A stretch of DNA of 44,735 bases from the NCBI GenBank assembly GCA_015233015.1, contig JADFYO010000026.1, positions 1-44,735 on the forward strand, read 5' to 3'. Below are positions 3,373 to 28,560 of this stretch, in pieces (positions within the stretch are counted from its first letter, which is position 1; each line of letters opens with the position of its first letter). The stretch is from Nitrospirota bacterium (lineage in GTDB: Bacteria; Nitrospirota; Thermodesulfovibrionia; Thermodesulfovibrionales; Magnetobacteriaceae). The notes below the pieces were generated by a model. That model made no database searches. It had not been told where the DNA came from and worked only from the letters and a program-made list of their open reading frames with translations. The translations under genes were made by a program, and so were the position numbers.

Positions 3373-4110
3373 TCAATAAAGCGCGGCTCCTAATGCGGCA
3401 AGCATATCGGGGGATTCATTTACGAATATTTCCTTCTGAAAAGAATCCTCGAGCATAGTAATCAGACATTGATTTTTTGCGCATCCTCCGGCAAAAACGA
3501 TGTCCTCATTTACTTCAATCCGCTTTGACAGGGCGATAACCTTTTGAGCAATCGATAAGTGGAGAGAGCGGGAAATCTGTTCCCGCCCTACACCCTTATT
3601 TATCAGGCTGACTACCTCTGATTCGGCAAACACCGTGCACATGCTGTTTATGGTGATATTGCTGTCATTATGTCCCGCGTAATCCAGCCCGAAATCGCTT
3701 ATGTCGTAATCGAGTGCCTTTGCCATTATTTCCATAAATCTTCCCGTACCGGCGGCGCATCTGTCGTTCATCTCAAATGCCCGGACGCCACCGCCGCCTC
3801 TTAAACTTATAACCTTTGAGTCCTGTCCTCCTATATCGATGACGGTGCGGCAGCGGGGGAAAATCTCTTTAGCCCCTCTGGCCACCGCCTTTATCTCAGT
3901 TATAGTTTTCGTGTCGTCCCACACTTCCATCAGGTGTCTGCCGTATCCGGTTGCCGTGAGCTTGTCGGGTTTATCAAAATTAATTAACTGCTTACACACT
4001 GATAGCGGGTTATGGCCGGTCTCCATTTTATAGAAAGACATCGTATCGTTATCGTTTAATACGACATACTTTACAAATCTGGAGCCGATATCGATGCCGC
4101 CTCTTTTCAA
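3373..4110 (-). CDS. ATP-dependent activator of double-cubane-cluster protein (BadF/BcrA/HgdC/YjiL family ATPase)
   Basis: Encodes 245 residues, full length for the acyl-CoA dehydratase activator family. The ASKHA-fold ATP motifs are present: GIDIGSRFVKYVV at the N-terminus and VIDIGGQDSKVISL in the middle. The two cysteines expected to hold a [4Fe-4S] cluster across the dimer lie in NDRCAAGTGRF and NSMCTVFAESE. FAGGCAKN follows near the C-terminus. Family members couple ATP hydrolysis to low-potential electron transfer into a partner iron-sulfur protein, here the gene just upstream. The start is TTG, placed immediately after the TAA of the partner gene, so the two are translationally coupled. 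No earlier in-frame start is possible, and the GIDIG strand is needed for the fold. Confidence 0.88.
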   Translation of the reverse strand: MKRGGIDIGSRFVKYVVLNDNDTMSFYKMETGHNPLSVCKQLINFDKPDKLTATGYGRHLMEVWDDTKTITEIKAVARGAKEIFPRCRTVIDIGGQDSKVISLRGGGGVRAFEMNDRCAAGTGRFMEIMAKALDYDISDFGLDYAGHNDSNITINSMCTVFAESEVVSLINKGVGREQISRSLHLSIAQKVIALSKRIEVNEDIVFAGGCAKNQCLITMLEDSFQKEIFVNESPDMLAALGAALY

Positions 4111-5394
4111 TTACACTCCCTTTATCATTTCAAGAAACGCCTCGACACGGGTCTTTAACTGTCCCATATCCTCTAACGAATAGTCGGTTTCAATACGCAA
4201 AAACGGTATGTCCTTTTCCTTCAGCGAGTTCTGCACCTTATATGATTCCATCATATAAACGGTACAAAACTGTAAAGCATAGTGGATAACGCCGTCAGCC
4301 TTCAATTTTCCCGCCATACTTGTGATATTGTCGAGACGCTCGTCGTTCGGTGTAAAACACGCGCAGTCTATCGTTAAATATCTTTCGGCTATCATTTCGA
4401 GGGCCTGCTCAACTGAATCAAATTTGTCATCGAGAAGCGTCCTGTAGTTTCTCTCACCGACACATGCCTCTTCGCCAACTACTACCGCTCCGGATGTCTC
4501 GATAACGGCATGTAATTTCCAGTTTGGAATAGCCATAGGAGACCCTGCTATCATTAACCTCGGCGCCCCTGCGGTGGCAACGCCCTTACCGTCTTTTACC
4601 CGCAGCTCAAGTTCGTCGCACAAATCGTTTAGTTGTGCGGTGAAGCGAATGGGGTCGTCAAAGAAGGAGATCTGGTTTATCAGGAGCGCGTCCAAGCCCG
4701 ATATAGGGGCAGGGTCGTTGCCCCTCAGTCTTGACAGTCTTTGCAGAGCGGCTCTTTTTTTGTTTACAACCCTGACGGCCTCTCTTAATTTCTCCAGTGT
4801 AATCTTTTTTGAGGCAACCTCCTGAAGTTTTTCGGCGAATTGCCTTATTTCCTGTTTCCACAGCCGCATGTCGCTGCCGGTCTTTTTATTTGGGACTTCC
4901 ATGACATAGACTTTGCCGGTTATTTTGTCAAAGGCCTCATACGCCTTCTTTTTGCCGTCACAGGTGGTCTCTCCCACTATGAGGTCAGTCGTCTCGACGT
5001 ACGGACAAATGCCGCTTAATTTAAACCCGATAAAAGACTTAATCAACGCGCATGTGTTTCGCGGTATAAGTGTCTCTGCGCTGTCACTTCCTACATCTGC
5101 GCCGGAACAAAGCCCGATACATACGCCGTCAACCGCGAGTATAAGCTCCTCGGGGACAAAGATACAGAATGTGCCTATTATCTTTTTGCCCTGTTCTTTG
5201 GCCTTAATCAATTCCTCGATTCTCAGGCCATGCACCTCGGATATGACAAAATCGAAATATGACATTCCCTTTGGGCGGTCTTTTTGTGACAGATATATGT
5301 TTTTATAGGCGTCGGTTAAAACTGAAAGTAATCCGTTGTGGGCGTTGATGTTTAGTCCGAGTTTCTTCCACATCTCAGTGTAGTCCTTTGACAT
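4111..5394 (-). CDS. Double-cubane-cluster protein, YjiM-like (2-hydroxyacyl-CoA dehydratase subunit D family)
   Basis: Encodes 427 residues. Sequence features match the YjiM/DCCP branch of the HgdB/FldB/BcrC superfamily: GTFCIFVPEEL, PRNTCALIK, ICPYVETTDLIVGETTCDGKKK in the first half, then GEEACVGER, DCACFTPNDERLD and LQFCTVYMMES. The conserved cysteines are present. Unlike true dehydratases it is paired with only an activator and no second subunit, as in characterised double-cubane-cluster proteins, which are homodimers with an [8Fe-9S] cluster that reduce small molecules such as acetylene in vitro. The physiological substrate is unknown. Start ATG 5394 has GGAGGA seven bases upstream. A long structured leader precedes it. 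The alternative is a genuine 2-hydroxyacyl-CoA dehydratase subunit, less likely without a partner. Confidence 0.85.
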   Translation of the reverse strand: MSKDYTEMWKKLGLNINAHNGLLSVLTDAYKNIYLSQKDRPKGMSYFDFVISEVHGLRIEELIKAKEQGKKIIGTFCIFVPEELILAVDGVCIGLCSGADVGSDSAETLIPRNTCALIKSFIGFKLSGICPYVETTDLIVGETTCDGKKKAYEAFDKITGKVYVMEVPNKKTGSDMRLWKQEIRQFAEKLQEVASKKITLEKLREAVRVVNKKRAALQRLSRLRGNDPAPISGLDALLINQISFFDDPIRFTAQLNDLCDELELRVKDGKGVATAGAPRLMIAGSPMAIPNWKLHAVIETSGAVVVGEEACVGERNYRTLLDDKFDSVEQALEMIAERYLTIDCACFTPNDERLDNITSMAGKLKADGVIHYALQFCTVYMMESYKVQNSLKEKDIPFLRIETDYSLEDMGQLKTRVEAFLEMIKGV

Positions 5395-5403
5395 AAATCC
5401 TCC

Positions 5404-5467
5404 GCGTTACTCATTTTTTTACGCACGGCAAGGCCGTACGAGAGAAACATCGGTCTTTGCTTAACGC
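5404..5467 (-). promoter_or_regulatory. Structured leader segment just before the double-cubane gene
   Basis: On the minus strand GCGTTA (5467-5462) pairs with TAACGC (5409-5404). It encloses an 8-bp hairpin CGTACGGC-CTT-GCCGTGCG (5440-5422) followed by a run of A. The outer stem ends a few bases before the GGAGGA ribosome binding site, so opening or closing it could affect translation. I recognise no riboswitch family. Confidence 0.4.
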
Positions 5468-5527
5468 TGAGGAATGACTTCAGGAAAGATTGTGTGAGCT
5501 TAAACAATCAACTAACGGTTGAGCATG

Positions 5528-5635
5528 AAAAAAAAGTCCCCTCAGCTGGTTAACCTCGACCAGGTTTTTTGGCGATGTTCAGCCAAAACCGCTTTTTATG
5601 ACGCCGCGCGTTAAGGCGGCTACAGAGACTTTTTT
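5528..5635 (-). ncRNA. Unassigned four-way-junction RNA candidate with U-tract, 5' leader of double-cubane operon
   Basis: A closing helix of nine pairs joins AAAAAAGTC and GACTTTTTT (5635-5627 with 5538-5530, minus strand). It encloses three hairpins: 5-bp stem at 5620-5603, 7-bp stem GGC/GCC plus A-U pairs at 5588-5567, and 5-bp stem CTGGT/ACCAG at 5563-5546. Each hairpin has an 8-base loop. On the minus strand the structure ends in GGGGAC followed by eight U. A TATAAT box lies about 30 bases upstream. It could be a terminator-controlled cis element or a free small RNA. The plus-strand reading also folds. I match it to no known family. Confidence 0.45.
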
Positions 5636-5664
5636 AATCACAATTTATACCCTCGCTTAACGCT

Positions 5665-5673
5665 ATTATAGCA
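5665..5673 (-). promoter_or_regulatory. Extended -10 promoter for the double-cubane leader
   Basis: The minus strand reads TGCTATAATAGCG, an exact TATAAT (5670-5665) with the TGn extension. No good -35 box is seen at 16-18 bases, as is common for extended -10 promoters. Transcription would start near 5658, about 23 bases before the structured leader and 264 bases before the gene. Confidence 0.55.
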
Positions 5674-7039: not shown

Positions 7040-8803
7040 TTAAAACAAACCTTTTACCTTACCGGTTTCTACGTCAACGTCAACCCTTCTGTACGCCGGG
7101 TCACTCGATGTGCCGGGCATTAGTTTTATATCTCCGGCTACGGGGACGACAAATCCCGCGCCCTTAAAGAGCAATATGTCTCTTATGAAGAGTCTCCAGT
7201 CCTTGGGCACTCCCTTCTTGTTTGGATTGTCGGAGACGCTCAGGTGGGTCTTGACCATACACGTGCCGAGCTTGCTCAATTCAGGGTCGGCCTCTATCGC
7301 CTTCGCCTTTTTGAGCGCGTCCGGGGAGTAGTCCACACCATCTGCCGCGTATATCTGTGTGGCAATCTTCTCTATCCTCTGCGTCAGCGGCATCTCAAGC
7401 GGATAGAGGAACTGGAAGTTGTTCGTCTCGTTACAAGCGTCAACTACCGCATCGGCCAGCTCAAGGGCACCTTCACCGCCCTTTTCCCAATGTCTGGAGA
7501 GCGCTACTCTTGCCCCTGCGGCCTCTGCGTTCTTTCTTACAATGGCAATTTCCGCATCGGTATCAGTGTAAAACGCGTTTATACATACGACGGGATTGAT
7601 GCCGGCGGATTTTATGTTTTTGATGTGATGTATAAGGTTTATGCAGCCCTTATCCACCCAGCCGACGTTTTCACCCTTATACTCATCGGGAATAGGCTTG
7701 CCTGGAACGGGAATCGGCGCCCCTCCGTGGCACTTCAATGCCCTTATCGTGGCAACGATAACGGCGGCGTTTGGTTTCAGACCGGAGTAACGGCATTTTA
7801 AATTCCAGAACTTCTCAAACCCTATGTCAGCACCGAAGCCAGACTCCGTTACGTGGTAATCGGCGAGCTTTAGTCCAACTCTGTCAGCTATTATCGAGGA
7901 CTGTCCTATTGCTATATTAGCAAACGGTCCGGCGTGAACCAGCACGGGCTGGCCTTCTATGGTCTGAAGCAGATTTGGATTTAATGCCTCTACCATCCAC
8001 GCGGTCATTGCGCCCGCAACATCGAGGTCACTCGTGGAAACGGGGTTTCCCTTCTTGTCATAGGCCACGACTATCTTACCCATTCTGTCTCTGAAATCCT
8101 TCAGGTCGGTAGCCACCGCCAGTATTGCCATTATCTCGGATGAGACGGCTATGTCAAAACGGGACTCCATCATAAAGCCGTCCATCTTGCCGCCTATTCC
8201 AATTATCATTTTTCTGAGTGACTGGGCACAAAAGTCCATTATCCAGCCCTGCTGTACCCTGCGCGGGTCTATGTCCAGCCTTCTTAACTTTCTCTTTGCA
8301 AGCTGGTCGTCCGTGTAGTTCTGCTCATGCTGCATTCTCGATGTCAGTGCCACCATCGAAAGGTTGTGGGAGTTTATTATGGCATTGATGTCGCCGGTTA
8401 ACCCCAGTGAAAATGGCGTCAATGGGACACACTGAGACAGGCCACCGCCCGCAGCCGAGCCTTTAATGTTCATCGTAGGGCCGCCGGAGGGCTGTCTTAT
8501 CGCCGCTATGACACTCTTTTTCCTCTTGCCAAGACCCTGAACCAGTCCGATGGTCGATGTTGACTTGCCTTCGCCAAGGGGTGTCGGGGTTATCGCCGTA
8601 ACGTCAATGTATTTGGCGTCGGGCTTGCCTGACATACGGCTTAACAGGCGCTTAAAGTCGATTTTTGCCACATAGTGTCCATGAGGAAGAAGCTCGTCCT
8701 TTGGCAGTCCTAACTCCTCGGCCAGCTGATATACTGTCTTCATGTTCTTTTCCGCTGCCTCGGCAATTTCCCAGTCAGCGTGGTTCTTTGGATCAAGCGG
8801 CAT
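7040..8803 (-). CDS. fhs: Formate--tetrahydrofolate ligase
   Basis: Encodes 587 residues, within the family range. It condenses formate, ATP and THF to 10-formyl-THF, the second step of the Wood-Ljungdahl methyl branch; the reverse reaction yields ATP. The P-loop [16 protein letters not shown] lies near residue 75. Family blocks [43 protein letters not shown]-like and HGGAP are all present, so the enzyme should be active. ATG 8803 overlaps the fdhA stop by 11 bases and has AGGAGGAC upstream, so translation is coupled to formate dehydrogenase. This order delivers formate from FdhA straight to Fhs. A hairpin follows the gene. Confidence 0.97.
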
Positions 8804-11486
8804 GATTGTTGTCCTCCTGTACTTTTTCTAATTTTACGGCACAGACCTTCAGCTCCGGTATCTTGCAAATTGGGTCATATACGGGATTTGTCAGCACGTT
8901 GGCGGCTGCCTCGCTGTAATGGAATGGGATAAAAACAACTCCCACATCCGGCACGTTTGTAACCTTTGCCTTCAGCTTTATCGAGCCTCTGCGCGACGTA
9001 ACCCGCACCATGGCGCCATTGTCTATGCTCATTCGACCTGCGTCTGCAGGGTTGATTTCTACGTATGCCTCGTGTGCGGTCTTATCTATCGCCTTTACGC
9101 GGCGCGTCATCGTGCCCGTGTGGTACTGAAGCAGCTGTCTGCCCGTTGACAGCGTAAAGGGATACTCCTCATCCGGCAGCTCCAGCGACGGGTTAAACTT
9201 TATTGCCGAAAACTTAGCCTTTCCTATAGGAAATGTGTCTTTGAACAAATAAGGCGTGCCGTGATGCTCAACGTTAGGACATGGCCACTGAATTCCATGC
9301 CTTTCTATGCGCCGGTAGTTTATGCCGGCTATATTCTGCCAAAGACGCCCCGCCTCGTCAAATACCTCAGACATATCGCTATAGTTCATATCATATCCCA
9401 TAGCGCGGGAAAGTTCCATGATTATCGCAGAATCATCCCTTGCATCCCCTGGGGGGTTGAGCGCCTTTCTAACTCTCTGAACGCGGCGGTCCGTATTGGT
9501 GAACGTGCCGTCTTTTTCGGCAAAACACGCCGCAGGAAGCACGACATCGGCCAGTTCGGTAGTCTGTGTCATGAATATATCCTGCACTACTAAAAACTCA
9601 AGGCTTTTAAGCGCGTGAATTGTGTGTTTCTGGTCGGCGTCGCTCATCACGGGGTTCTCTCCCATGATATACAGCCCCTTGAGTTTGCCAGCCTCGGCGG
9701 CATACATCATGTCGATTGCCGTCATCCCTGGCTTGTCCGGGAGTTTCACCTTCCACTCTGCCTCAAACTTCGCCCTTGCCGCCTCGTCAGTTACCTTTTG
9801 ATAACCTGGGAACACATTCGGGGCAGCGGCCATATCGCTTGCTCCCTGGACGTTATTCTGCCCGCGCAAAGGATTAAGCCCGACTGACGGACGCCCAAGG
9901 TTGCCTGCCATCAGTACAAGGTTGGCAAGACTATAGACGTTGTCAGTGCCGTGGCTGTGCTGGGTAATGCCCATTGTGTAATATATGGCGGCGTTTTTCC
10001 CTGCGGCATAAATCCTTGCTGCCTCGATTATCTTTTCTCTCGGCACGCCGGTTATCTTCTCACCAATGGCCGGTGTATATTCCTCTACGGCCTCGGCGAC
10101 TTTAGCAAAACCTTCTGTGCGCTCCTCTATGAACTTCTTATTTATCAGGTCTTCCTTTATCATCACGTGCATGATGCTGTTAATGAGCGCCACGTCCGTG
10201 CCGTGTCTCTGCTTGAGCCACAGATGGGCATGTTTAACCAACGGTATGCGCCGCGGGTCGGCGATTATCAGCTTCGCCCCATTTTTGACCGCCTTTAGCA
10301 TTCTCAACGCCACAATAGGGTGATTCTCCTTCGTGTTTGAGCCAATTACGAATAACACATCGTTATTCTCCGTCTCAGGGACGGAGTTTGTCATAGCGCC
10401 CGAACCAAATACTGTGACCAGACCGGCCACCGTGGGGCTGTGTCAGAGACGGGCGCAGTGGTCGACGTTATTCGTCCCTATCACCGCGCGCATAAATTTT
10501 TGAAACAAGAAGTTCTCCTCGTTCGTACATCTGGCCGAGGACAGTCCGGCAAGTGAGTCCGGGCCGTGATCTTCTACTATTTTCTTAAACCTGGCCGCAA
10601 TATACGCAATGGCCTCGTCCCATGTCGCCTCTGTGAATTTCCCGTCTTTCTTTATCAATGGGGTCTTAAGCCTGTCAGGGCTGGTTATGAATTCGTAACC
10701 AAACCTGCCCTTCACACATAGCCATCCCTCGTTATGAGTATCCGGCTTCGATGATACGCGGGCTATCTCGTTGCCCCGCACATGGAGATTAAGCTGACAA
10801 CCGCAGCCGCAGTATGAACAGGTCGTCTCGACTTCCTTTACATTAAGAGCGCGTCCCTTCTTTTCCCAAATGCGCCCCGAAAGCGCGCCTGTCGGGCACA
10901 CGCTGACACACTGCCCGCAAAATTCGCAATTTAAGTCTCTCTCAAACGATGGGCAGACCTTCGCGTCAAACCCCCTGTAGGCTATGTCAATAGCCCCAAC
11001 GCCCTGCACCTCGTTACACACTCGCACGCACTGGCCGCACAGGATGCACTTGTCCATGTTTCGCTCGATAAATGGATTGCCGTCCTGCTTCGTATACTGC
11101 CTTCTCTTGCCGTAGAACCTGTTGGCTCTAAGCCCATAGAAATAGGCAAACTCCTGGAGCTTGCAATCCCCCGCGCGCTCACATATCATGCAGTCGTTGG
11201 GATGGTCTGAAAGCAGCAGTTCAATGACCGTCTTTCTCAATCTCTCAACCGTTGGGGTGGCGGTCTTTACTTTCATCCCCTCTGTAACCGGCGTCGTACA
11301 AGAGGTAGTGGGTTTTGGCATCCCCTCTACTTCGACAAGGCAAAGACGGCAGCCGCCGTATGGCTCAAGGGCGGGATTGTCGCAAAGCGTGGGGATATAG
11401 ATCCCGTATTTTCTGGCCGTCTGAAGGATTGTGGCACCAAGATCAGCCTCCACCTCTTTGCCGTCTATCGTTAATTTAATACTCAT
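8793..11486 (-). CDS. fdhA: NAD-dependent formate dehydrogenase catalytic subunit, selenocysteine-containing
   Basis: Read through an in-frame TGA at 10445-10443, the gene encodes 897 residues with Sec at position 348. The context [15 protein letters not shown] is the canonical formate dehydrogenase active site. Domains in order: [2Fe-2S] ferredoxin (Cys 35, 46, 49, 63), His-Cys [4Fe-4S] motif (His 95, Cys 99, 102, 108), two [4Fe-4S] motifs ([22 protein letters not shown]), the molybdopterin-oxidoreductase [4Fe-4S] segment (CSYCGCGC), then the Mo/W-bis-MGD domains ending in [11 protein letters not shown]. It interconverts CO2 and formate. I chose ATG 11486, seven bases after GGAGGAGGA; a TTG at 11492 sits too close to it. 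It is cotranscribed with NuoE/NuoF-like subunits and fhs. Conventional ORF calling would split it in two at the UGA. Confidence 0.96.
10414..10445 (-). promoter_or_regulatory. Selenocysteine codon and SECIS hairpin of fdhA
   Basis: The UGA codon is at 10445-10443. Twelve bases later GTGGCC (10430-10425) pairs with GGTCAC (10419-10414) to form a six-pair stem with one G-U. The apical loop is GGTCT, the same loop core as the SelB-binding SECIS of E. coli fdhF. This supports decoding of UGA as Sec. Confidence 0.88.
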
Positions 11487-11505
11487 CGTCAATCCTCCTC
11501 CTTTA

Positions 11506-14078: not shown

Positions 14079-14176
14079 GGGAGTGCATGGGGTTCTGGTG
14101 TCCCTCCCGGACTTCAAATCCGGTGTTTCCTGCCAAAAGCGGGAAGGGTGGGTTCGATTCCCACACGCTCCCGCCA
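14079..14176 (+). tRNA. selC: tRNA-Sec (anticodon TCA)
   Basis: The gene is 98 bases long with encoded CCA. The acceptor strands GGGAGTG and CGCTCCC pair with one G-U, and the eighth position is C opposite A. The anticodon arm CCGGA/TCCGG holds loop CTTCAAA with anticodon TCA at 14114-14116. A long variable arm (TTTCCTGC/GCGGGAAG) and a T arm GTGGG-TTCGATT-CCCAC follow. The long variable arm, extended acceptor/T stack and UCA anticodon identify it as the selenocysteine tRNA. It is divergent from the formate dehydrogenase operon, whose UGA it decodes. Confidence 0.96.
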
Positions 14177-27533: not shown

Positions 27534-28560
27534 TGATGTCAATAGTGGACACTAAATCATTCATGCCGCAGTTCTTTTTTCATAGAGTTGTTTTTCATAA
27601 GCGGCTGGAGATAGGTATCCGAGCCGTGCCTGAGTTCTCTGATGGTTATAGAAAACCTCTATGTATTCGGTGATGTCGTTGATAGCTTCTTGTCTGCTCC
27701 TGTAATGGCGATGATAAACGAGTTCATTCTTAAGCGTTCCCCAGAAACTTTCCATCGGCGCATTGTCATGGCAATTACCCTTTCTGCTCATAGACGCCAC
27801 TATGCCTGACTGCTCAAGCGACCTTCTGTATTCATGTGCGCAGTACTGACTTCCACGGTCAGAATGATGGATAAGCCCCTTACCAGGGCGTCTGGATGCC
27901 ACTGCCTTAAACAATGACCGGCTGACAAGCTCCTTTTTCATGCGATCCGACATGGCATATCCTACAATCCTTCCGCTGCATATATCCTTATGCCCCGCAA
28001 GGTACAACCACCCCTCATCTGTCGGTATATAGGTTATATCTGAGAGCCATACCTGATTTAGCGCAGTTGCCTCAAAACGCTGATTAAGAAGATTATCCGC
28101 TACGGGCAGTTTATGCTTGGAATCTGTCGTGGCTTTAAATCTCCTCTTCTGTTTACATTTTATGCCAAGTTTCTTACGAATACGCCTGATTCGGCAGACC
28201 CCAACGTTCACTCCATTATTCGACAGCTTCTCTTTAAGGCGCTCAGTTCCGTATGTCCCCCTTGTCTGCTTGTGCGCTGCCAGTATATATATCTCCAGTC
28301 GAGTCTCCTCTTTTTCGCGCATCGATGGTTCCCTCTCAAGCCGGGCGTAATATCCGCTGGCTGATACTTTCAATACCCGCCTAAGAAATGGCACTGATAA
28401 CCGCCTGCCAACCTCCGGTATTGATAATCCACCTTCTATCAATAACTTTACCGCCTCTTCTCTAAACTCCTTCGTGTACTTCCCGTTCGGGATCCTTTCC
28501 ATTGAACACCTCCATTGAGTTTCTTATTTTACTCTTTTTTGGTGTCCACTTTTTCCATCT
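27534..28560 (-). mobile_element. IS3-family insertion sequence, about 1.03 kb, deletion derivative
   Basis: Ends carry imperfect inverted repeats sharing GATGnnAAnAGTGGACAC: TGATGTCAATAGTGGACAC at 27534-27552 and, inverted, AGATGGAAAAAGTGGACAC at 28560-28542. Between them lies one transposase gene. The right end matches the element tail at 1-120. The element is about 200 bp shorter than usual IS3 members because part of orfA/orfB is missing. I see no target-site duplication at these boundaries. Confidence 0.85.
27561..28502 (-). CDS. IS3-family transposase, OrfA/OrfB fused by internal deletion
   Basis: Encodes 313 residues. Residues 1-38 are the start of OrfA (YTKEFREEAVKLLIEGG, a helix-turn-helix). 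From about residue 39 the sequence jumps to the OrfB start region (RRVLKVSASGYYARL), HTH_21 and the rve integrase core. The DDE residues are seen in WLSDITYI, HHSDRGSQY and NAPMESFWGTLKNE. The leucine-zipper half of OrfA and the normal frameshift window are absent, yet the reading frame stays open. It may be an inactive or regulatory derivative. GGAGGTGTTCA precedes the ATG. Confidence 0.88.
   Translation of the reverse strand: MERIPNGKYTKEFREEAVKLLIEGGLSIPEVGRRLSVPFLRRVLKVSASGYYARLEREPSMREKEETRLEIYILAAHKQTRGTYGTERLKEKLSNNGVNVGVCRIRRIRKKLGIKCKQKRRFKATTDSKHKLPVADNLLNQRFEATALNQVWLSDITYIPTDEGWLYLAGHKDICSGRIVGYAMSDRMKKELVSRSLFKAVASRRPGKGLIHHSDRGSQYCAHEYRRSLEQSGIVASMSRKGNCHDNAPMESFWGTLKNELVYHRHYRSRQEAINDITEYIEVFYNHQRTQARLGYLSPAAYEKQLYEKRTAA

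What the first reader, a model, noticed from the sequence alone, without database searches (positions are those of the whole stretch)
5404..5670. Unassigned structured leader RNA in front of a double-cubane-cluster operon
From a TGCTATAAT promoter, a leader of about 264 bases runs to the double-cubane gene. It contains a four-way junction (9-bp closing helix, three hairpins with 8-base loops) that ends in eight U, then a second closed hairpin just before the ribosome binding site. I match it to no riboswitch family. It may be a new cis-regulatory RNA, with a terminator decision followed by a translation decision, or a small RNA. A leader on this enzyme class could also reveal its unknown physiological signal.
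Basis: partly seen in the sequence, partly recalled or inferred. Interest (0 to 1): 0.62.

Follow-up and report, generated by a model that had tools for sequence, protein, structure and literature searches.

The report
Selenocysteine-sensing leader before double-cubane operon
The RNA in front of this enzyme operon appears to encode a tiny leader peptide that ends in a UGA codon followed by a selenocysteine-insertion hairpin, and relatives carry the same leader in front of other selenium-linked genes, so it probably lets the cell sense its selenocysteine supply.

Summary
The leader is real and conserved, but it does not look like a ligand riboswitch with a four-way junction. It holds a short ORF (GTG 5641 to UGA 5579, 20 codons, own SD) ending ...K-x-[GA]-F-G-UGA. 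After 17 nt comes a hairpin, AACCU-GGUCG-AGGUU, that meets the published bacterial SECIS constraints tested. It shares the GGUC loop, at nearly the same spacing, with the Sec site of fdhA in this window.

Covariance searches find the leader in 36 places in 230 genomes of the class, and none in sampled genomes of other classes of the phylum. Downstream lie dcc, selC*-like tRNAs, yedF and a transglutaminase-like gene, mostly selenium-linked in the literature. UGA is invariant (34/34) while the next in-frame stop varies. The read-through frame is open at least 21 codons in 31/34. The SECIS 3' half is complementary to a strand about 100 nt downstream (mean z -2.5; controls about 0), which in the window can instead pair with the dcc ribosome-binding site.

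Best reading: a selenocysteine attenuator, probably ON when Sec-tRNA is scarce. The architecture is well supported; Sec insertion, switching and its direction are inferred. I found no precedent in the library searched.

The parts
5664..5672 (-). promoter-like extended -10 element TGCTATAAT
   Evidence: sequence; kept in G003 and G005, altered in G002 and G004
5650..5654 (-). Shine-Dalgarno GAGGG of the leader ORF
   Evidence: GAGG kept before the start codon in most relatives; AGGAGG in other clades
5579..5641 (-). leader ORF MIKKVSVAALTRGVIKSGFG followed by UGA (5579-5581)
   Evidence: starts GTG/TTG/ATG, in-frame indels, codon position 3 most variable
5552..5566 (-). SECIS-like hairpin AACCU-GGUCG-AGGUU, loop 17 nt after the UGA (strands 1:2)
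   Evidence: conserved in 34 leaders with some both-side changes; one of only two such sites in the window, the other being the fdhA Sec site
5480..5578 (-). read-through frame of 32 codons to a second stop UGA at 5480-5482
   Evidence: read-through frame open at least 21 codons in 31 of 34 leaders, other frames 16 of 34
5624..5631 (-). P1 5' arm AAGUCUCU, lies in leader codons
   Evidence: pairs with 5534-5541 in five same-genus genomes
5534..5541 (-). P1 3' arm GGGGACUU, followed by U8 in the window
   Evidence: U tract not conserved
5532..5556 (-). strand 2: SECIS 3' arm and following sequence
   Evidence: complementary to strand 3, z -2.5 in the window, mean -2.54 over 24 leaders
5458..5482 (-). 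strand 3: UGAAGUCAUUCCUCAGCGUUAAGCA, pairs with strand 2 or with strand 4
   Evidence: very strongly conserved in the genus
5399..5409 (-). strand 4: UAACGCGGAGG, contains the dcc Shine-Dalgarno sequence; can pair with CCUCAGCGUUA of strand 3
   Evidence: 3:4 z -2.5 in the window, -2.3 in G002, -3.3 in G004
4111..5394 (-). dcc, double-cubane-cluster anaerobic reductase (regulated gene)
   Evidence: NF040772, 477.9 bits, cut-off 350
3373..4110 (-). activator ATPase of the dcc operon
   Evidence: TIGR00241, 214.3 bits, cut-off 125.4

Best explanation
The leader is a selenocysteine attenuator. A leader peptide (14-35 codons) ends in ...K-x-[GA]-F-G-UGA and is followed by a SECIS hairpin (strands 1:2). 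Inferred working: with enough Sec-tRNA, SelB decodes the UGA and the ribosome reads on, melting strand 2; strand 3 is then free to pair with strand 4 (here the dcc ribosome-binding site, in a few relatives a U-rich terminator) and the gene is OFF. When Sec-tRNA is scarce the ribosome stops at the UGA, strand 2 captures strand 3 and the gene is ON. Shown here: the conserved translated-looking ORF, the invariant UGA, the SECIS-like hairpin, the 2:3 complementarity and the selenium-linked downstream genes. Inferred: actual Sec insertion, the switch, and its direction.
For: Coding signature of the leader ORF. UGA in 34/34 leaders while the second stop is TAA 17, TGA 14, TAG 3. Hairpin meets the bSECIS constraints tested (PMC13188914) and shares loop and near spacing with the fdhA Sec site; only these two sites in the window against 0.2 expected. 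Both-side changes in three hairpin pairs. Read-through frame open in 31/34 against 16/34. Downstream genes dcc, selC*-like tRNA, YedF, transglutaminase-like, linked to selenium in PMC10418091, PMC5322559 and PMC7609411. SelB and tRNA-Sec present. Strand 2:3 complementarity, mean z -2.54, controls 0.50 and -0.08; 3:4 at the dcc ribosome-binding site in the window's genus.
Against: No direct evidence of Sec insertion or of regulation. Predicted accessibility of the SD changes little between ribosome states. Strand 3:4 pairing is not general (mean z -0.9) and simple terminators occur in only three leaders. L143, L145 and L146 do not show the 2:3 pairing. Hairpin covariation is moderate. SelB is nearly universal in the class, so its presence is not a discriminating test. 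The models were built from UGA-bearing sequences, so UGA invariance has some ascertainment.
Confidence: 0.6

Rival explanations
1. Same Sec-UGA leader, opposite sign: Sec insertion switches the gene ON, because a ribosome that has read through stops beside strand 3 and keeps it from the ribosome-binding site.
For: In the window and G002 the second stop abuts strand 3, and a ribosome parked there raises predicted SD accessibility from about 0.20 to 0.42 and 0.55.
Against: In other leaders the second stop lies up to 34 nt or more before strand 3, and no such rise is predicted in G003 and G005.
Confidence: 0.2
2. A very small functional selenoprotein (…GFGU plus tail) encoded in the operon; the conserved RNA is simply its SECIS and coding sequence.
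For: Conserved peptide end before the UGA and a SECIS-like hairpin.
Against: UGA-to-loop spacing takes all values 16-21, so the sequence after the UGA is read in three different frames and the tail is not conserved; the N-terminal part differs completely between clades. No Cys or other redox partner next to the UGA. The 2:3 pairing would be unexplained.
Confidence: 0.07
3. An ordinary leader peptide whose UGA is a plain stop, with slow termination after GFG; the hairpin is only part of the attenuator and selenium is not involved.
For: Conserved residues directly before the stop resemble those of termination-arrest leader peptides (own knowledge).
Against: UGA is invariant while second stops vary; the hairpin has the fdhA Sec-site loop and spacing; the read-through frame is kept open; the target genes are selenium-linked.
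Confidence: 0.08
4. Metabolite riboswitch or small RNA.
For: Long structured leader; P1 and the U tract are kept in the window's nearest relatives.
Against: No Rfam match; what is conserved is a codon-structured ORF plus a SECIS-like hairpin; the U tract is not conserved.
Confidence: 0.05

Closest known systems
Amino-acid attenuators with leader peptides (trpL, hisL and similar; own knowledge)
   Same: Short leader ORF with strong SD, a codon for the sensed amino acid, and competing RNA pairings downstream.
   Different: The sensed residue would be selenocysteine, decoded at UGA through a SECIS that is itself one of the competing helices; the output in the window is pairing at the ribosome-binding site, and terminators are seen in few relatives.
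SECIS-like element in the E. coli selAB leader (Thanbichler and Boeck; own knowledge, paper not read here)
   Same: A SECIS-like hairpin in a leader before selenium genes, expected to bind SelB.
   Different: As I recall, that element is not preceded by a leader ORF with an in-frame UGA; here the UGA, the ORF and alternative pairing are conserved.
Bacterial SECIS of formate dehydrogenase (fdhA of this window)
   Same: UGA, 17 or 18 nt, stem, loop GGUC plus one base.
   Different: The fdhA element lies inside a long conserved coding sequence; the leader's read-through product is short and not conserved.
selC* tRNA-Cys (PMC7609411)
   Same: tRNA-Sec-like tRNAs with GCA anticodon lie directly downstream of several leaders, in the phylum where selC* has been described.
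   Different: That review does not describe any leader in front of selC* (no occurrence of 'leader' or 'operon' in its text). The 8/4 fold was not checked here.

Membership tests
Bacterial SECIS element (constraints as in PMC13188914) | UGA 16-37 nt before the apical loop | tested here: met
   17 nt in the window; 16-21 nt in 34 leaders
[quoted passage not shown]
   loop GGUCG (5 nt), stem of 5 bp in the window and 5-10 in relatives
Bacterial SECIS element (constraints as in PMC13188914) | minimum-free-energy criterion of the model | not tested
   threshold not computed
Bacterial SECIS element (constraints as in PMC13188914) | directs SelB-dependent Sec insertion | not testable with these tools
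   needs an experiment; SelB and tRNA-Sec are encoded
Leader-peptide attenuator | translated short ORF upstream of the regulated gene | tested here: met
   SD, start codons, in-frame indels, codon-position signature; translation itself not measured
Leader-peptide attenuator | mutually exclusive RNA structures downstream of the control codon | tested here: met
   strand 2:3 complementarity overlapping the SECIS 3' arm, mean z -2.54 over 24 leaders; three leaders do not show it
Leader-peptide attenuator | terminator or ribosome-binding-site sequestration as output | tested here: inconclusive
   3:4 pairing in the window's genus, terminators in three leaders, little predicted change of SD accessibility
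Known Rfam riboswitch or RNA family | match at or above the gathering score | tested here: not met
   no match at the site
Selenoprotein gene | conserved product across the UGA | tested here: not met
   the frame after the UGA shifts between clades
Double-cubane-cluster protein | NF040772 above its cut-off with an activator gene next to it | tested here: met
   477.9 bits against 350; TIGR00241 adjacent

The most novel reading that the evidence does not exclude
A previously undescribed class of selenium-sensing leaders: a leader-peptide UGA plus SECIS works as a selenocysteine attenuator for a selenium regulon (dcc, selC*-like tRNA-Cys, yedF, a transglutaminase-like gene), which would give the double-cubane enzyme and selC* a physiological signal.
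Probability: 0.65. Interest if true: 0.9.

Novelty: new variant of a known kind. Interest (0 to 1): 0.82.

Why it matters
The physiological roles of double-cubane-cluster reductases and of selC* tRNA-Cys are open. A shared leader that reads selenocysteine supply would place both in the selenium response and make that directly testable. It would also be the first Sec-UGA/SECIS attenuator I know of: a recoded stop codon used as a nutrient sensor.

Tried and rejected
Rfam at gathering and permissive thresholds: nothing at the site. Single-sequence folding: z only -1.5 to -1.65. Dispersed repeat: one copy in the genome, no match in plasmids. Conserved selenoprotein product: rejected because the frame after the UGA shifts between clades. 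U8 terminator: not conserved. SD accessibility under masked ribosome positions: not discriminating. Simple terminators: only three leaders. SelB co-occurrence: uninformative, since 206 of 230 genomes of the class have it. The paper of Haft and Gwadz on selenoproteins is not held; I rely on how PMC10418091 cites it.

Full report
WHAT IS THERE. On the minus strand, upstream of the double-cubane gene (dcc, NF040772, 477.9 bits; activator TIGR00241 next to it), lies a leader of about 260 nt. No Rfam family matches it, and the single sequence folds only slightly better than shuffles (z -1.5 and -1.65). It occurs once in the genome. A DNA search of 7 genomes of the genus found it in 5, this one included. 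A covariance model (R1) found it in 8 of 19 family genomes; reading the dcc upstream region of a ninth (G008) by eye showed it too. Family genomes without an orthologous dcc lack it, as does G013, whose dcc-like gene scores below the curated cut-off.

A correctly oriented alignment shows that the stretch called 'first hairpin' varies by in-frame insertions. A short ORF runs from GTG 5641 to UGA 5579-5581, with GAGGG 8 nt upstream: MIKKVSVAALTRGVIKSGFG-UGA. Relatives use GTG, TTG or ATG. Across 34 leaders the last eight codons vary mostly at position 3 (mean entropy 1.27 bits, against 0.74 and 0.52 at positions 1 and 2; for 15 representatives 1.28, 0.79 and 0.64). The consensus end is K-x-[GA]-F-G-UGA.

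THE UGA AND THE SECIS-LIKE HAIRPIN. Seventeen nt after the UGA comes the loop of AACCU-GGUCG-AGGUU. The bacterial SECIS constraints given in PMC13188914 (loop 3-9 nt, stem 4-16 bp, G in the first two loop positions, 16-37 nt from the UGA) are met; the energy criterion was not tested. The Sec codon of fdhA in this window has UGA, 18 nt, GGUCU. Scanning the window on both strands for UGA, 16-21 nt, a stem of at least 5 bp and a GGUC-plus-one loop gives exactly these two sites, against 0.2 expected from Markov sequences. On 34 leaders (A7) three hairpin pairs show changes on both sides (for example U-A to C-G, and A-U to G-C, in L144 and L150); 6 cells changed on both sides were reached by 5 of 500 shuffles. 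Other control measures are moderate, so covariation supports the hairpin without proving it. UGA is invariant (34/34) while the next in-frame stop is TAA 17, TGA 14, TAG 3; the models were built on UGA sequences, so some ascertainment remains. The read-through frame is open at least 21 codons in 31 of 34, against 16 of 34 in each other frame; the three exceptions stand before tRNA genes. The UGA-to-loop spacing takes all values from 16 to 21, so the following sequence is read in three different frames and the product is not conserved. SelB is encoded by this genome (G000:C87) and tRNA-Sec lies at 14079.

DISTRIBUTION AND TARGETS. The core model R2 finds 36 places at E below 1e-5 in 230 genomes of the class. 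A wider draw of 396 genomes over the phylum finds none outside the class at E up to 0.001. Named relatives are Nitrospirota MAGs, one labelled Candidatus Magnetobacteriaceae. Downstream genes: dcc in roughly half; YedF (TIGR03527) in L127 and L131; a transglutaminase-like protein in L121, L123, L125, L133, L139, L143, L145 and L146; tRNA-Sec-like tRNAs, most with GCA anticodon (GTA in L131), in L127, L131, L136, L137, L138, L140, L141, L142, L144 and L150. The name transglutaminase-like is my own reading of the sequence; NCBIfam gave no match. The tRNAs resemble selC* tRNA-Cys, reported from Nitrospirae (PMC7609411); the 8/4 fold and the A51a bulge were not checked. PMC10418091 calls the dicubane cluster protein 'provisionally linked to selenium metabolism'. 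PMC5322559 lists YedF, 2-hydroxyglutaryl-CoA dehydratase subunits and a transglutaminase-like enzyme among selenium-associated genes of Slackia.

ALTERNATIVE PAIRING. The SECIS 3' half plus the next 25 nt (strand 2) is complementary to a strand about 80-125 nt after the UGA (strand 3): mean z -2.54 over 24 leaders (t -8.6), while leader-ORF and upstream control segments give 0.50 and -0.08. The leaders are related, so t overstates independence; L143, L145 and L146 do not show it. In the window strand 3 (5458-5482) can also pair with the dcc ribosome-binding site (UAACGCGGAGG, 5399-5409): z -2.5, with -2.3 and -3.3 in G002 and G004. Over all leaders the 3:4 signal is weak (mean z -0.9). In L042, L043 and L059 a terminator-like AACCUCA...UGAGGUUUUUUU follows, and its 5' strand matches the SECIS 3' arm (sequence). 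In the window's genus P1 additionally pairs leader codons with strand 2.

HOW IT PROBABLY WORKS. By analogy with trpL: with Sec-tRNA present the UGA is decoded, the ribosome melts strand 2, strand 3 is free for strand 4, and the gene is OFF; with Sec-tRNA scarce the ribosome stops at the UGA, 2:3 forms, and the gene is ON. In nearly all leaders the second stop lies past strand 2, so a read-through ribosome would traverse it. Folding with masked ribosome positions shows no clean SD switch, so the direction is an inference.

NOVELTY. Five searches of the open library on Sec leaders, SECIS in leaders and selenium attenuation found no such system; subscription papers are mostly not covered. I class it as a new variant of leader-peptide attenuation, with the E. 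coli selAB SECIS-like element (own knowledge) as the nearest selenium example.

Noticed in passing
window 8793-11492, minus strand: fdhA (formate dehydrogenase alpha) is split in ORF lists by an in-frame UGA at 10443-10445 (...DHCARL-UGA) followed after 18 nt by a GGUCU hairpin: a Sec codon with its SECIS.
   Followed up: yes
window 14079-14172, plus strand: tRNA-Sec gene (anticodon UCA) close to the formate dehydrogenase and dcc genes; SelB lies on another contig (G000:C87).
   Followed up: partly
L065, about 121 nt upstream of the dcc match (position 4001): In a deltaproteobacterial MAG a short ORF with SD (MRRDFRISQLMT) ends in UGA, followed after 17 nt by a 9-bp stem with a GGUCC loop, before dcc. 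It may be an independent Sec leader; single case, about 0.1 expected by chance.
   Followed up: no
L121, L123 and L125, between leader and transglutaminase-like gene: tRNA-like stretches with a CTGCAAA anticodon-loop motif that ARAGORN does not call; possibly degenerate or unusual selC* genes.
   Followed up: no
L116 and L127, downstream of the leader: The start of dcc (MSGKDYTKMWEG...) is fused to a rhodanese-like protein (L116) or ends early before a tRNA-Cys and yedF (L127), as if dcc had been lost behind a retained leader.
   Followed up: partly
L033 6023-6114 and L148 706-803 (minus): tRNA-Sec-like or tRNA-Cys gene downstream of dcc in the same direction, in L148 after the activator gene, suggesting that selC* can lie at the end of the dcc operon.
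   Followed up: partly
window 27561-28502, minus strand: Open frame that looks like an IS3-type transposase.
   Followed up: no
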